A DNA stretch of 60,764 nucleotides from Sneathiellales bacterium (lineage in GTDB: Bacteria; Pseudomonadota; Alphaproteobacteria; JANQFL01), in NCBI GenBank assembly GCA_028277845.1, contig JANQFL010000020.1:1-60764 (forward strand). The letters run 5' to 3'. Position 1 is the first letter of the stretch. Each line of letters opens with the position of its first letter. This document shows positions 32,493 through 38,153 of the stretch, in pieces. The translations under genes were made by a program, and so were the position numbers. Under the pieces are notes generated by a model. It did not search any database. It saw nothing but the letters and a program-made list of their open reading frames with translations, and was not told where the DNA came from.

Positions 32493-33581
32493 TTACACCG
32501 GCTGCAGATCCTCTTCCTCGTCACCGCCGCCGACGCTTTTGATCTCGAGATCCTCGGCGATCAATCCCGCCTCCTGGCGGATGGTGTTTTCGATGGCGTC
32601 GGCGATTTCCGGATGCTCGGCCAGGAAGGTCTTGGCCGCCTCCCGGCCCTGCCCGACCCGTTGACTGTCATAGGAGAACCAGGAACCGGATTTCTCCACC
32701 ACCCCGGCCTTGACGCCCAAATCCAGCAATTCACCGGTCTTGGAGATGCCTTCACCATACATGATGTCGAATTCCACCTGTCTGAACGGCGGCGCCACCT
32801 TGTTTTTCACCACCTTGACCCGGGTCTGGTTGCCGACCACCTCGTCGCGGTTCTTGATGGCGCCGATGCGGCGGATTTCCATGCGGACGGAAGCGTAGAA
32901 CTTAAGCGCGTTGCCGCCCGACGTGGTTTCGGGATTGCCGAACATGACGCCGATCTTCATGCGGATCTGGTTGATGAAGATGACCATGCAGCGCGAGCGG
33001 GAAATCGACGCCGTCAGCTTGCGCAGGGCCTGGCTCATCAGGCGGGCCTGCAGGCCGACATGGGTATCGCCCATCTCGCCTTCCAGCTCGGCGCGCGGCA
33101 CCAGGGCCGCCACGCTGTCGATGACCAGAACGTCGATGGCGCCGGACCGGACCAGCGTATCGGCGATTTCCAGGGCCTGTTCACCGGTATCGGGCTGGGA
33201 AATCAGCAGTTCCTCGACATCGACACCCAGCTTGCGGGCATACACCGGGTCGAGCGCGTGTTCGGCGTCGACGAAGGCACAGGTGCCGCCGGTTTTTTGC
33301 GCTTCCGCCACCACGTGCAGCGCCAGGGTCGTCTTGCCCGAACTTTCCGGTCCATACACTTCGATGATCCGGCCACGCGGCAAACCGCCGATACCCAGGG
33401 CCAAATCCAATCCGAGCGACCCGGTCGAGATGGCTTCCACCTCCACCGCCTGCTCGCCCTGGCCCAATTTCATGACCGAGCCCTTGCCGAACGCCCGCTC
33501 AATCTGACTCAGAGCGGCGTCCAACGCCTTCTGTTTATCCATATTGTCCGTTCCTACGACGCGAAGTGCTGGTGCCGACAT
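32493..33581 (-). CDS. recA: RecA recombinase
   Basis: A 362-aa DNA strand-exchange protein and activator of LexA self-cleavage. It starts [35 protein letters not shown] as in other alphaproteobacteria and carries the P-loop GPESSGKT and the conserved [17 protein letters not shown] segment, with an acidic tail ([10 protein letters not shown]). ATG 33581 with AAGGA eight bases upstream is preferred; a GTG one codon earlier is possible. A perfect direct-repeat SOS box and a weaker one lie upstream. Confidence 0.97.
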
Positions 33582-33635
33582 CACAACTATCCTTCAGTTA
33601 TTTCATAGCCGCTTCCGCGATGCAATACGGGCAAT

Positions 33636-33650
33636 GTACATGATTTGTTC
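33636..33650. promoter_or_regulatory. near-match LexA box (GTAC-N7-GTTC)
   Basis: GTAC-ATGATTT-GTTC, one base off GTTC-N7-GTTC, about 55-70 bp upstream of recA. It is closer to recA than the perfect box. Confidence 0.4.
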
Positions 33651-33703
33651 TCTTTGGCAAGCCATTTTATATCCATTTGATATCACAAGTGTTTTCGCAC
33701 CAT

Positions 33704-33718
33704 GTTCCGGGAACGTTC
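33704..33718. promoter_or_regulatory. perfect alphaproteobacterial SOS (LexA) box
   Basis: GTTC-CGGGAAC-GTTC, an exact GTTC-N7-GTTC direct repeat as used by LexA in alphaproteobacteria. It lies between divergent recA (start 33581) and a small gene (start 33800), so either or both may be damage-inducible. Confidence 0.75.
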
Positions 33719-33799
33719 AACAAAATACGAAATTTCCAAAGTATATATACTATACTGAATAGTCTTCTAACCTCATTTGAAGGCCAACGAGTTAGAACT

Positions 33800-34060
33800 A
33801 TGTCACAAAACCAGATCAACGAACTGACAACCAACGTTGCTATTCTCCATTTTCTCGTACATCAACTCATGGTCGCGCACTGTGAAAAGGAGTCGGATCC
33901 CGTTGCGTTTGCCCAATCACTCCTAACCGAAATGGAAGGAATGCTCGCAGAAGTGCCAAAAGACCATCAGTGGCAAATCGACATATCCGACCAAATGAAA
34001 GCGTTTTTTGCCCAGGTGGTTTCGACTCTGAAATCGAATACCCATCACCATGACGCGTGA
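33800..34060 (+). CDS. small helical hypothetical protein
   Basis: Not recognised. The 86-aa, probably all-helical soluble product (MSQNQINELTTNVAIL..., LLTEMEGMLAEVP...) ends with a His-rich tail (THHHDA). It is less GC-rich than its neighbours and sits divergent to recA with an SOS box about 82 bp upstream, so it may respond to DNA damage. The ribosome site is weak. Confidence 0.55.
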   Translation: MSQNQINELTTNVAILHFLVHQLMVAHCEKESDPVAFAQSLLTEMEGMLAEVPKDHQWQIDISDQMKAFFAQVVSTLKSNTHHHDA

Positions 34061-34347
34061 TGTAATCGATCGCCTCACTTAACTAAACTGAGTGTTCCAT
34101 GCCAGACCTACATAACCGAATATTTGCTTACGAGGTCAATGCCCTTAAGGGCACCAAAGGTAAACGCCTGACCTATCGAAGGATTGATCAAGCCGCAAGC
34201 GTCTAAAGCGTATATCCGCTGGAATAACTGGCGCCGCTGACTTCTTGCGACCATGCGCGTAATCGCTAAAATAATTTTGCGGAGTGGTGGGGCCCTCTTT
34301 AGCCGAAGGGGTAAACCCACGCCACAACCCGCACGCCCCTCCGGCTA

Positions 34348-34363
34348 GAGGGGCCGAGCAAGG
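34348..34363 (+). repeat. left half of 16-bp inverted repeat
   Basis: GAGGGGCCGAGCAAGG; its exact reverse complement occurs at 34733-34748, 370 bp away, as one arm of a terminator. Confidence 0.85.
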
Positions 34364-34497
34364 CACGGTCCGTCAGAACCCGCCCTGACAAAGCGCTTCT
34401 TTTGACGGGTAGCCGTGTAGCCCGATCCTGTAAATGACGGTGCACCGAGGCATGAAATAAGAGCCAAAGTGACCACCGGCAGGGTGTCAATCGGGTT

Positions 34498-34530
34498 CCA
34501 CTGTGCAGACTCGTACAATCCGCACAGTGG
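34498..34530. other. perfect 9-bp stem-loop
   Basis: CCACTGTGC and GCACAGTGG pair around a 15-base loop. No T-run follows on either strand, so it is more likely part of a structured RNA or protein-binding site than a terminator. Confidence 0.6.
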
Positions 34531-34630
34531 CGCCGAAAGCCAGTGACATGGCGTAACTTTGTCTAGCTGGCCCGGACTTCACAAACCTTTTCGGTCTGTG
34601 AGGCCTCGCGGACCAGAAAGGTGACCTTCT

Positions 34631-34714
34631 ATGGCCATCAATCTGGTCATTAAGGTCAACGTAGCCGCCATAGTTTGGGCTATTGCCTTTGTGGTGGTTT
34701 CTCTGTTGGCCTAG
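34631..34714 (+). CDS. 27-residue hydrophobic peptide
   Basis: ATG at 34631 has AAAGGTG seven bases upstream. It encodes 27 aa ending VVVSLLA, with one membrane-spanning stretch (about residues 9-26) after a short polar start with one Lys. A strong terminator begins five bases after the stop, and structured RNA precedes it. The arrangement resembles type I toxin genes or phage-type small membrane proteins, but no family is recognised and no antitoxin RNA has been shown. Confidence 0.45.
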   Translation: MAINLVIKVNVAAIVWAIAFVVVSLLA

Positions 34715-34719
34715 TTGAA

Positions 34720-34758
34720 GAGGGGTCGGGTTCCTTGCTCGGCCCCTCACCTTTTTTT
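34720..34758 (+). terminator. Rho-independent terminator after small peptide gene
   Basis: GAGGGGTCGGG pairs with CTCGGCCCCTC (11 bp with G-U pairs) around a 7-base loop, followed by seven T. Its right arm is the second half of the 16-bp inverted repeat. Confidence 0.85.
34733..34748 (-). repeat. right half of 16-bp inverted repeat
   Basis: CCTTGCTCGGCCCCTC, the exact reverse complement of 34348-34363, forming the 3' arm of a terminator hairpin. Confidence 0.85.
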
Positions 34759-34851
34759 GTGGCATTGGGGACGTTTCCAGAAAGCGCGTCACAACTTTCT
34801 GAATTTCGAGGTCATTTGTTGGTTTGTCATTTTCTCAAGAATTTTTGTCAC

Positions 34852-35420
34852 ATGTCTGAAACAAAAACCTCAAAGGAGAAGATGGACGAATTTTATGTCG
34901 CCTATGGGAAAGTTATCGACGACTGGGCCTTCATTGAATTCGTCTTATCACAAATATTTAGGTCCATCACGCAGATCGACAAGAAGTTAAGCGCTGCGAT
35001 CTTCTACTCTGAGCGAAGCTTTCAAACCCGAAAAGGTTTGCTTCCGCCGCGATCAGAAGCGCGCCCATCGATGGTGCGCCTGACCAAATAACTGAATTCG
35101 CCCAAGCCTGCCTGAAAAAGGCTACTCAATACAGCACCTTTAGAAACTTACTAGCCCACTGCCTTATTGTTTGGAACGACGTAACTAATCGCGCTGATTT
35201 AAGAGAAGGCGACGACATTGAAGACCTTCATTCGGAAAGACTTTTCTTCCTGGAAGATTTGGTCAACGCCGAAAGAAATCTCAGTGAGTTCAAATCTCTG
35301 ATGTTGAGAGTTATTCGGCCCGACGCCTATGAACCAGGGCTGTCTCCAAGTGAAGGTCGCAAATTAATTCTGCAACTGCCCAATGAGGCGCAGTTTCCTG
35401 CATCCAACCAGAACACATAA
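34852..35420 (+). pseudogene. frameshifted hypothetical gene
   Basis: The frame from ATG 34852 reads MSETKTSKEKMDEFYVAYGKVIDDWAFIEF...FYSERSFQTRKGLL and then loses sense, stopping at 35091. From about 35043 the adjacent frame continues sensibly as AAIRSAPIDGAP...TFRNLLAHCLIVWNDV...LVNAERNLSEF and stops at 35420. One missing base near 35042-35046 would join them into a protein of about 189 aa. The layout, ending in an RNxLAH motif, resembles a widespread family of small helical hypothetical proteins often found in mobile regions. Low GC fits acquired DNA. A sequencing error is an alternative. Confidence 0.65.
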
Positions 35421-35522
35421 GCGCCCTAACACCTACTTCGATCATCTAAAGCTTAGACTAATTCTCCGCGCAGGCCCGTCCGTCCTGAAGTATTGCCTTG
35501 AACATCGGCTGATGGAGACCGG

Positions 35523-38099
35523 TCAAACGTGCTCAGCCGCCATGACTTCCTTCACCTTGCCGGCCAGTTGCTTGAGGCTGAACGGCTTCGGCAGGAAGCT
35601 GATTTCGCGGGCGTCCCCATCCAGGTTCTTGCGGAAGGCGTCCTCGGCATAGCCGGAAATGAAGATGATCTTGGTTTCCGGCCGGCTTTCGCGGATGTGT
35701 TTCACCAGCGTCGGGCCGTCCATCTGCGGCATCACCACGTCGCTGATCAGCAGATCGATGGTGTCGTCGTGATCGTCGACCACCTTGAGCGCGGATTCGC
35801 CGCTGTCGGCTTCCAGGACCGTATAACCCTTGTTGCGCAACGCCCGGGCCGCGAAGGTGCGTACGGCGTCCTCGTCCTCCACCAGCAACACCAGCCCCTT
35901 GCCCGTCAGGTCGCGGGCCGTCGCCGGCTCGTCGGCGACCTCGGCGGCCTCGCGGCCGCCCTCTTCCTGCACGTACTGCGGCAGGTAAATCCGGAACGTG
36001 GCACCCTTGCCCGGTTTGGAATCCGGGAAAATATAACCGCCGGTCTGTTTGACGATACCGTAGACCGTACTCAGCCCCAGCCCGGTGCCGGCGCCGACCT
36101 CCTTGGTGGTGAAGAACGGTTCGAAAATCTTGCCCAGGTGTTCACCCGGAATGCCATGGCCCGTATCGCCGACCTCAATCATCACGTAGTTGCCGGGCGG
36201 CATCAGTTCATGGCTGAGCCGCATGGATTCGTCGACGGTGACATTGGACGTGCCGATCGACAATTCCCCGCCGCCTTCCGACGTGCCCGCCATGGCGTCG
36301 CGGGCGTTGACCGCGAGATTGATGATCACCTGTTCGATCTGGCCATGGTCCGCCTTGACCAGGCCGAGATCCCGGCCGTGTGTCATGTTCAACTGGATGT
36401 TTTCACCGATCAGCCGGCGCAGCAGGTGCGACAGTTCCGACAGCACGTCGGTGACGTCCAGGACCTTGGGCCGCAGGGTTTGCTGACGCGAAAACGCGAG
36501 CAGTTGGCGCACGAGATTGGCGGCCCGGTTGGCGTTCTGTTTGATCTGCATGATATCGGAGAACGACTCGTCGCCGGCCTGGTGGCGCATCAGCAACAGG
36601 TCGCAGAAGCCGATCATCGCCGTCAGCAGATTGTTGAAGTCGTGGGCGATACCGCCGGCCAGCTGGCCCACCGCCTGCATCTTCTGCGACTGGGCGAACT
36701 GCATTTCCAGGTTTTTCTGCTCGGTGGTGTCGATCAGATGAATGACGGCGCCGCTCACCGCGCCGTCATGATCGGTCACCTTGCTGGCAAAGAGCTGCGC
36801 CACACATTGATTGGGGCCGAGAATACGTGCTTCGGTCGGGTCGGTACGCTGCTTGCCGCTCAACGCGCCCTCGATCAGCGCGGTCACTTCGGCCTTGTCG
36901 TCGTGGGATACAAGGCTGGTGAACGGGGTGTCGGACAGATTGCCGGTTTCGCTGCCCGACATCTCTCTGAACGCATCGTTGGTCTCGACCACGATGCCGT
37001 CGCCGTCGACGGTGGCGATACCGATCGGCGCGTCGTCGAAAAACCGGCCGATGCTGTCGCGGGATTGCCGCAACGTGGTTTCCAGCGCCACCTCCTGCGT
37101 CAGGTCGCGGACGGCGGCACGGGCATACAGCATATTGCCTTCGTTGCCGTAGACGGCCTTTTGCGAAATCTCGGCCAGGAAGACATTGCCGCGGCGTCCG
37201 GTCAACGCAATGCGCCCCTGTACGCCGCCGGTGGTCAGCGCATCGGCACCGATCGTCGCCGCGCCATCCTCGGCCACCACATCGACGATTTTGGTGTCAC
37301 CACCGATCAAGTCGCCACGGGAACGTCCCAGCCAACTGGCCAAGGTCGAATTGACGAACAGGAACTTGCCGTCCCGGTCGATGGCGTAAAAGCCGATCGG
37401 CGCGTTGTCGAGAAAGCCCGAAAGCTCGGTTTGCTGCTCCGCCACCATCTGTTCCAGGTCTTGCCGGGCGGTGACGTCGTCCAGGTCCCACAGGGTCCGG
37501 TCGTCGGCCACGAAATAGACGGCCCGGGCGTTGTACCAGCGCCGCGTGCCGTCGGCCGCCGTATGCCGGATAAGGCCTTCGCCCCGCCCTTCCTTGCGCA
37601 CCGCGCCGGTCAGGTCCTTGATCTCGGATTCATATTTGCCGGACAGGCCGAGCACCGCGGTCAGTTCCCGGTCAGCGTCCGGCGTGACGTCGCCGAACAG
37701 AAGCGAGGCCTGATCGTTGCAATACACGACGCGGCCTTCGCCGTCGGTTACCAGGACCGGGCTGTTGCCGCGTTCGACGGCCTCGCCGATGAGACGTTGC
37801 AGGGAGGTTTGATTTTGCTGTGACGATACGGACCGCAGGGCAAGCAAGATGGCGGCCGCCAACAGGACGAACCCGCCGCCCGCGATCGACATGGATGCGG
37901 CGACGCCGAGGCTGGGTCCGTTGAGCACGGCGAAAGCGGTTGCGGCGACGGCAAGCGCGAATGCCAGCGTCACGCTGACCGCCGCGGGAATGGCGCCCGG
38001 TTTACGCTTCTGTACCTTGGGTACCATGCCGGAGGTGTCGATCGATCCGTTTGTCGCGGTCACTGGGTCCCCGCCGTCATCGGCGGCCATTCGATTCAT
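35523..38099 (-). CDS. cckA: hybrid sensor histidine kinase CckA
   Basis: An 858-aa cell-cycle/motility kinase. Two transmembrane helices (about residues 33-85) precede several PAS domains. The histidine-kinase core has the CckA-type H box GGIAHDFNNLLTAMIGF, N box NLAVNARDAM and the ATP lid GTGLGLSTVYGIV. The C-terminal receiver domain has the phospho-acceptor in LLISDVVMPQMDG. CckA feeds phosphate through ChpT to CtrA, which controls flagellar genes. Its position directly after flhB is conserved in this group. ATG 38099 is preferred to an upstream GTG. Confidence 0.94.
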   Translation of the reverse strand: MNRMAADDGGDPVTATNGSIDTSGMVPKVQKRKPGAIPAAVSVTLAFALAVAATAFAVLNGPSLGVAASMSIAGGGFVLLAAAILLALRSVSSQQNQTSLQRLIGEAVERGNSPVLVTDGEGRVVYCNDQASLLFGDVTPDADRELTAVLGLSGKYESEIKDLTGAVRKEGRGEGLIRHTAADGTRRWYNARAVYFVADDRTLWDLDDVTARQDLEQMVAEQQTELSGFLDNAPIGFYAIDRDGKFLFVNSTLASWLGRSRGDLIGGDTKIVDVVAEDGAATIGADALTTGGVQGRIALTGRRGNVFLAEISQKAVYGNEGNMLYARAAVRDLTQEVALETTLRQSRDSIGRFFDDAPIGIATVDGDGIVVETNDAFREMSGSETGNLSDTPFTSLVSHDDKAEVTALIEGALSGKQRTDPTEARILGPNQCVAQLFASKVTDHDGAVSGAVIHLIDTTEQKNLEMQFAQSQKMQAVGQLAGGIAHDFNNLLTAMIGFCDLLLMRHQAGDESFSDIMQIKQNANRAANLVRQLLAFSRQQTLRPKVLDVTDVLSELSHLLRRLIGENIQLNMTHGRDLGLVKADHGQIEQVIINLAVNARDAMAGTSEGGGELSIGTSNVTVDESMRLSHELMPPGNYVMIEVGDTGHGIPGEHLGKIFEPFFTTKEVGAGTGLGLSTVYGIVKQTGGYIFPDSKPGKGATFRIYLPQYVQEEGGREAAEVADEPATARDLTGKGLVLLVEDEDAVRTFAARALRNKGYTVLEADSGESALKVVDDHDDTIDLLISDVVMPQMDGPTLVKHIRESRPETKIIFISGYAEDAFRKNLDGDAREISFLPKPFSLKQLAGKVKEVMAAEHV

Positions 38100-38153
38100 G
38101 ATCCCTGCAGAATGATATCTCACGTTTACGATCCCAAGCCAAGCGGCATGCGG

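What the first reader, a model, noticed from the sequence alone, without database searches (positions are those of the whole stretch)
34334..34758. Structured element with inverted repeats, stem-loops and a 27-residue hydrophobic peptide
In 425 bp there are a 16-bp inverted repeat, a perfect 9-bp stem-loop, a hairpin close to the ribosome site, a 27-aa single-helix peptide gene with a ribosome site, and an immediate strong terminator. The layout resembles a type I toxin with a regulated leader, a small mobile element or a structured regulatory RNA. No known RNA class was recognised.
Basis: partly seen in the sequence, partly recalled or inferred. Interest (0 to 1): 0.62.

Follow-up and report, generated by a model that had tools for sequence, protein, structure and literature searches.

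The report
Locked mRNA for hydrophobic membrane peptide
Between two conserved genes of an alphaproteobacterium lies a roughly 480-base RNA that folds up on itself and hides the start of a tiny membrane-peptide gene, the way bacteria keep self-poisoning ('type I toxin') messages switched off; no relative of it was found in any collection searched, so its function is inferred from its anatomy only.

Summary
The + strand from about 34280 to 34758 folds far better than its shuffles (z about -6.5 to -6.9). The signal stops at the element's edges. It holds a promoter-like site (34245-34272), a 16-bp perfect inverted repeat (34348-34363/34733-34748), a 9-bp hairpin (34498-34530), a 27-codon ORF (34631-34714) with a Shine-Dalgarno, and a 12-bp terminator with seven T's. 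One of 3000 shuffles has a comparably hydrophobic, SD-led ORF, and this is the only such ATG ORF in the window.

The SD is predicted to be masked as soon as it is transcribed. The upstream repeat arm first pairs just upstream, and is predicted to switch to the terminator's 3' arm once that is made. This is the logic of type I toxin mRNAs (hok, aapA, timP).

Best explanation: an mRNA locked like a type I toxin mRNA, encoding a one-helix membrane peptide (0.6). Not shown: transcription, toxicity, and an antitoxin (none convincing found). No homologue appeared in class genomes, plasmids, phages, viral contigs, syntenic loci or family libraries, so covariation could not be tested. A mobile element is unlikely.

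The parts
34245..34272 (+). sigma-70-like promoter candidate TTGCGA-16-TAAAAT, start of transcription near 34279-34282
   Evidence: 9 of 12 consensus matches; score below the 90th percentile of shuffles, so not significant on its own
34280..34758 (+). inferred transcription unit (structured mRNA, about 479 nt)
   Evidence: MFE z -6.9 on + and -5.4 on -; flanking 400-nt tiles outside the element are near zero to -1.9
34284..34345 (+). 5' hairpins and GCCCTC/GCCCCTC segments that pair with the left repeat arm while the RNA is incomplete
   Evidence: pair probability 0.5-0.6 in transcripts ending 34660-34719, about 0.02 in full length
34348..34363 (+). left arm of the 16-bp long-distance interaction
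   Evidence: pair probability 0.95 with 34733-34748 in full-length RNA
34364..34417 (+). two-part hairpin CACGGT/GCCGTG and CCGTCAGAA/TTTTGACGG
34419..34429 (+). segment predicted to pair with 34722-34732 (terminator 5' arm) in the end-paired fold
34498..34530 (+). perfect 9-bp hairpin CCACTGTGC/GCACAGTGG
   Evidence: -15.1 kcal/mol
34539..34571 (+). hairpin GCCAGTGACA/TGTC..GCTGGC
34585..34622 (+). SD-masking hairpin; anti-SD ACCTTTT 34585-34591 pairs with GAAAGGT 34616-34622
   Evidence: -21.5 kcal/mol
34617..34623 (+). Shine-Dalgarno AAAGGTG, 7 nt before ATG
   Evidence: sequence; unpaired probability 0.15 in full-length RNA
34623..34657 (+). start-codon hairpin GACCTT..ATGGCCA/TGGTCAT..AAGGTC
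   Evidence: -15.4 kcal/mol
34631..34714 (+). ORF, 27 aa, predicted single membrane helix MAINLVIKVNVAAIVWAIAFVVVSLLA
34720..34758 (+). intrinsic terminator, 12 bp stem plus ACCTTTTTTT
34733..34748 (+). right arm of the long-distance interaction, overlapping the loop and 3' arm of the terminator

Best explanation
The element is a single-gene transcription unit for a 27-residue, one-helix inner-membrane peptide whose mRNA is made in a locked form, working like a type I toxin mRNA. As RNA polymerase moves, the left repeat arm is held by hairpins just upstream. The SD is captured by an upstream anti-SD as soon as it is made, and the start codon is captured by a second hairpin, so coupled translation is blocked. 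When the terminator's 3' arm has been made, the left arm can pair with it (16 bp) and the 5' and 3' parts of the RNA close on each other, giving a compact, probably long-lived mRNA. Translation would need an opening event (nuclease processing, structural rearrangement or a standby site), and an unidentified antisense or trans sRNA would normally hold the open form down. The structure and the masked ribosome site are predicted strongly; transcription, the opening event, the antitoxin and the membrane toxicity are inferred.
For: Fold energy z -6.5 and -6.9, confined to the element and stronger on + than -. SD and start codon predicted mostly paired in the full-length RNA and in most truncated forms. 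Growing-chain folding shows the SD paired by position 34620-34630 and the left arm switching partner at 34740-34750. End-pairing duplex -35.7 kcal/mol. Hydrophobic SD-led ORF p about 1/3000, unique in 60 kb. Promoter-like site and strong terminator frame it. Literature: an untranslatable primary transcript with the SD masked by an anti-SD up to 11 nt away, or by 5'-3' long-distance interaction, is described as a major hallmark of type I loci (PMC6733600); membrane type I toxins are under 60 aa, hydrophobic, one helix, and lack sequence conservation (PMC8309996); DinQ is likewise 27 aa (PMC3567139).
Against: No antisense RNA gene is evident: the best - strand promoter-like sites score within the range of shuffles, and no trans-complement of 10 nt or more lies upstream. 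No homologue of RNA or peptide, so no covariation or codon conservation can be shown. Removing the 3' arm does not open the SD in silico, so the opening step of hok is not reproduced. The full-length fold with the terminator hairpin kept is only 3.2 kcal/mol less stable, so end-pairing is favoured but not certain. The + strand promoter is no better than shuffles. All anatomy rests on one sequence and on energy models.
Confidence: 0.6

Rival explanations
1. A structured small-membrane-protein mRNA whose peptide is not toxic but regulates or stabilises a membrane protein; the leader is a riboregulated translational switch without any antitoxin.
For: Same anatomy; no antitoxin gene found.
Against: The depth of masking (two hairpins plus long-distance pairing in a 350-nt leader) is more than an ordinary small-protein gene is known to need (general knowledge); no neighbouring membrane complex partner in the gap.
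Confidence: 0.17
2. A noncoding structured RNA closed by a terminal helix (as large bacterial ncRNAs are); the ORF is incidental.
For: z -6.9 over the whole unit, 16-bp closing helix, terminator at its end.
Against: An SD-led ORF this hydrophobic appears in 1 of 3000 shuffles and its stop codon lies 5 nt before the terminator stem. Enterobacterial ryfA was first filed as noncoding and then shown to encode the toxin TimP (PMC7667032).
Confidence: 0.13
3. A transcription attenuator for the downstream ORF (34852-35420): the leader arms 34348-34363 and 34419-34429 act as antiterminators for the terminator at 34720-34748, and translation of the valine/isoleucine-rich peptide influences read-through.
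For: Both terminator arms have alternative partners in the leader in the minimum-energy fold; the ORF stop is 5 nt from the terminator stem.
Against: The downstream ORF has a reading-frame break and no family match; the leader ribosome site is masked rather than open; the left arm competes with the terminator's 3' half, made last; no long run of one regulatory codon.
Confidence: 0.06
4. A small non-autonomous mobile element with terminal inverted repeats.
For: 19-nt arms flank a 363-nt interior; the cckA-recA gap of this lineage is long and AT-rich.
Against: Single copy; arms elsewhere only by chance, for example in ABC-transporter codons; no target duplication seen; the right arm is part of the terminator.
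Confidence: 0.03

Closest known systems
hok/sok (plasmid R1 family, mRNA end-pairing)
   Same: Long structured leader that neither ribosome nor antitoxin can enter in the full-length mRNA; pairing of 5' and 3' parts; metastable 5' hairpins; small membrane peptide (PMC4147584; PMC6733600).
   Different: No mok-like overlapping ORF was recognised; SD is masked by a local upstream anti-SD that stays closed after 3' trimming; no antisense gene recognised; no sequence relation.
aapA/IsoA (Helicobacter)
   Same: Sequential SD-masking hairpins during transcription followed by a 5'-3' long-distance interaction (PMC6733600).
   Different: Here the long-distance interaction uses the terminator's 3' arm and leaves the SD in its local hairpin; leader is about 350 nt; AapA1 needs a C-terminal Lys-Arg (PMC10537873 abstract), absent here; antisense promoter not found.
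timP/TimR (ryfA)
   Same: Structured leader with the SD in an unusually stable hairpin, small inner-membrane peptide, once filed as ncRNA (PMC11228461; PMC7667032).
   Different: TimP is 38 aa with a signal sequence; the leader is shorter (ORF at nt +145); divergent TimR gene has no counterpart here; no Rfam match.
dinQ/agrB and tisB/istR
   Same: DinQ is a 27-aa single-helix peptide listed as lacking C-terminal positive charge; its primary transcript is not the translated form (PMC3567139; PMC8309996).
   Different: dinQ is LexA-controlled; no LexA-like box (GTTC-N7-GTTC) lies at this promoter, although an exact match lies upstream of recA at 33704-33718.

Membership tests
Type I toxin-antitoxin locus | ORF for a small (under 60 aa) hydrophobic one-helix peptide with ribosome site | tested here: met
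   27 aa, GRAVY 2.29, SD AAAGGTG; 1/3000 shuffles
Type I toxin-antitoxin locus | primary transcript predicted untranslatable, SD masked by anti-SD or long-distance interaction | tested here: met
   (prediction only, no probing)
Type I toxin-antitoxin locus | antisense RNA antitoxin gene | tested here: inconclusive
   - strand promoter-like sites score within the range of shuffles; no - strand hairpin terminator with a T-run; no upstream trans-complement of 10 nt or more
Type I toxin-antitoxin locus | peptide toxic when expressed, relieved by the antitoxin | not testable with these tools
   needs bench work
Type I toxin-antitoxin locus | opening of the mRNA by processing or rearrangement | tested here: inconclusive
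   no simple 5' or 3' trimming clearly frees both SD and AUG in silico
hok/sok family | overlapping mok-like ORF and Hok-like protein | tested here: not met
   no Pfam, NCBIfam or PHROG match of the peptide; no overlapping SD-led ORF recognised in the ORF list; no Rfam hit
ryfA/timP (RF00126) | match to the Rfam family | tested here: not met
Small mobile element with terminal inverted repeats | more than one copy, or arms repeated elsewhere in the genome | tested here: not met
Small mobile element with terminal inverted repeats | target-site duplication outside the arms | tested here: not met
   by reading the flanks CGGCTA / ACCTTT

The most novel reading that the evidence does not exclude
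A so far undescribed alphaproteobacterial toxin-mRNA family in which the terminator's 3' arm doubles as the end-pairing lock and the ribosome site is sealed by two further hairpins, with opening triggered in trans, for instance by an RNA carrying CCGAAAAGGTTTG, the perfect 13-nt complement of the anti-SD segment found in the downstream ORF at 35028-35040.
Probability: 0.12. Interest if true: 0.65.

Novelty: new member of a known kind. Interest (0 to 1): 0.42.

Why it matters
Type I toxins share almost no sequence, so they are hard to find by homology and are known from a limited set of groups; my paper searches brought up none described for Alphaproteobacteria, though this was not an exhaustive review. 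If real, this locus would show that strong RNA folding plus a hydrophobic SD-led mini-ORF can reveal such a gene from a single genome, and it would offer a compact case for studying how an mRNA locks itself while being transcribed.

Tried and rejected
Rfam at gathering and relaxed thresholds: no family. tmRNA/tRNA scan of the window: none. 6S RNA: a candidate lies on another contig, so this is not a divergent 6S. DNA search of 96 and 385 class genomes: only the locus itself plus short weak matches; L008/L023 (57 nt, 75%, around an SD-ATG) and L025 were read and judged chance similarity of ribosome sites, without the peptide or the rest of the element. Single-sequence covariance model of 34498-34660 over 385 genomes and 80 syntenic loci: only itself and parts of its own reverse strand; L118 (E 0.03), L120 and L121 lie in GC-rich, open-frame DNA and were rejected. 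Peptide search over 385 class genomes, plasmids and phages, and exact pattern scans of viral contigs: nothing convincing. Synteny: cckA-recA adjacency is common in alphaproteobacteria, but no such element was seen in 17 of the longer gaps. Neighbouring ORFs as anchors: no informative relatives.

Full report
Setting. The window is a 60,764-base contig (C92) of a 5.39-Mb draft genome of which no other member of the same order is held; CckA relatives point to Alphaproteobacteria around the Rhodospirillales. The element lies in an unusually long, AT-richer gap (33585-35522) between recA (32493-33584, - strand) and cckA (35523-38123, - strand). The names recA and cckA rest on my recognition of the translations and on the syntenic relatives. 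recA and cckA are neighbours in many alphaproteobacteria, with gaps mostly of 100-1200 bp; 17 of the longer gaps were read and none holds a comparable element.

The observation. None of 1000 shuffles has a perfect inverted repeat as long as the 16 bp seen here. The ORF with its SD and hydrophobicity (GRAVY 2.29) is matched in 1 of 3000 shuffles and is the only one of its kind with ATG in the window. The folding energy is 6.5 to 6.9 standard deviations below shuffles; the + strand scores lower than the - strand (-6.9 against -5.4), and tiles outside the element are at background. Twenty-three of 160 pairs are G-U on the + strand, consistent with the + strand being the RNA. That promoter match is no better than the best site of many shuffled sequences.

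Anatomy of the lock. In the full-length RNA the SD (34617-34623) is part of a hairpin with an upstream anti-SD, and the start codon is inside the next hairpin (-21.5 and -15.4 kcal/mol alone). When folding is repeated for growing transcripts, the left repeat arm pairs with 34287-34299 from the moment it is made, the SD is paired when polymerase is 0-10 nt past it, and only when 34740-34750 is made does the left arm move to the right arm. This is minimum-energy folding of each length, not a kinetic simulation. The right arm includes the 3' half of the terminator; the terminator's 5' half then finds a partner at 34419-34429. Keeping the terminator hairpin costs only 3.2 kcal/mol, so both folds may coexist. 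Trimming the 3' end or the 5' leader in silico does not clearly free both SD and AUG.

Mechanism. These are the marks described for type I toxin mRNAs: an untranslatable primary transcript, an anti-SD close to the SD, sequential hairpins during transcription and a 5'-3' long-distance interaction (PMC6733600; PMC11228461; hok as reviewed in PMC4147584), with a small hydrophobic one-helix peptide (PMC8309996; DinQ, 27 aa, PMC3567139). I therefore propose a locked mRNA for a membrane-acting peptide. Shown by computation on one sequence: structure, masking, ORF, terminator. Inferred: transcription, stability, opening step, antitoxin, toxicity.

Antitoxin. The best - strand promoter-like sites (34919-34890, and a perfect TTGACA at 34490 with a poor -10) are within chance, no strong hairpin precedes a T-run on the - strand, and no stretch of 10 nt or more upstream could encode a TimR-like divergent partner. 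The one noteworthy complementarity is 13 nt between the anti-SD segment 34582-34594 and 35028-35040 in the downstream ORF, on the same strand; such a length arose in 1 of 300 mononucleotide shuffles. An RNA carrying it could free the SD; this is speculation.

Homology. Nothing was found by DNA, peptide or covariance-model search in up to 385 class genomes, by DNA and peptide search in 72,556 plasmids and 50,697 phage records, by exact patterns in viral contigs, or in family libraries. The class search is a sample, and the contigs of 84,980 species could be scanned only once, which I spent on synteny. Covariation, the strongest test, therefore remains undone, and that limits confidence.

Verdict. 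Real, well-formed and unusual in its completeness, most likely a type I toxin-like locked mRNA (0.6), but an orphan: it works like that class on paper, while membership stays open for lack of an identified antitoxin and of any toxicity test. The novelty grade 'new member of a known kind' refers to the kind 'self-locking mRNA for a small hydrophobic peptide', not to any named family.

Noticed in passing
34852-35420 (+): ORF starting 94 nt after the terminator is split by one frame shift near 35030-35045; its C-terminal part carries RNLLAH, which resembles the R-x4-H motif of HEPN RNases. No Pfam or PHROG match and no relative among 357 class genomes. Pseudogene or assembly error.
   Followed up: partly
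34582-34594 and 35028-35040: Perfect 13-nt complementarity between the anti-SD segment of the leader and the downstream split ORF; as long a match arose in 1 of 300 shuffles.
   Followed up: partly
33704-33718 (+): GTTC-N7-GTTC, a match to the alphaproteobacterial LexA box (from general knowledge), upstream of recA, while the small structured element has none.
   Followed up: partly
33800-34060 (+): Orphan 86-aa ORF between recA and the element; a single weak match (39% over 46 aa) among 357 class genomes.
   Followed up: partly
G000:C67:2416-2575 (L002): 6S RNA candidate just under the family's cut-off (45.3 against 46.4 bits) elsewhere in the genome.
   Followed up: no
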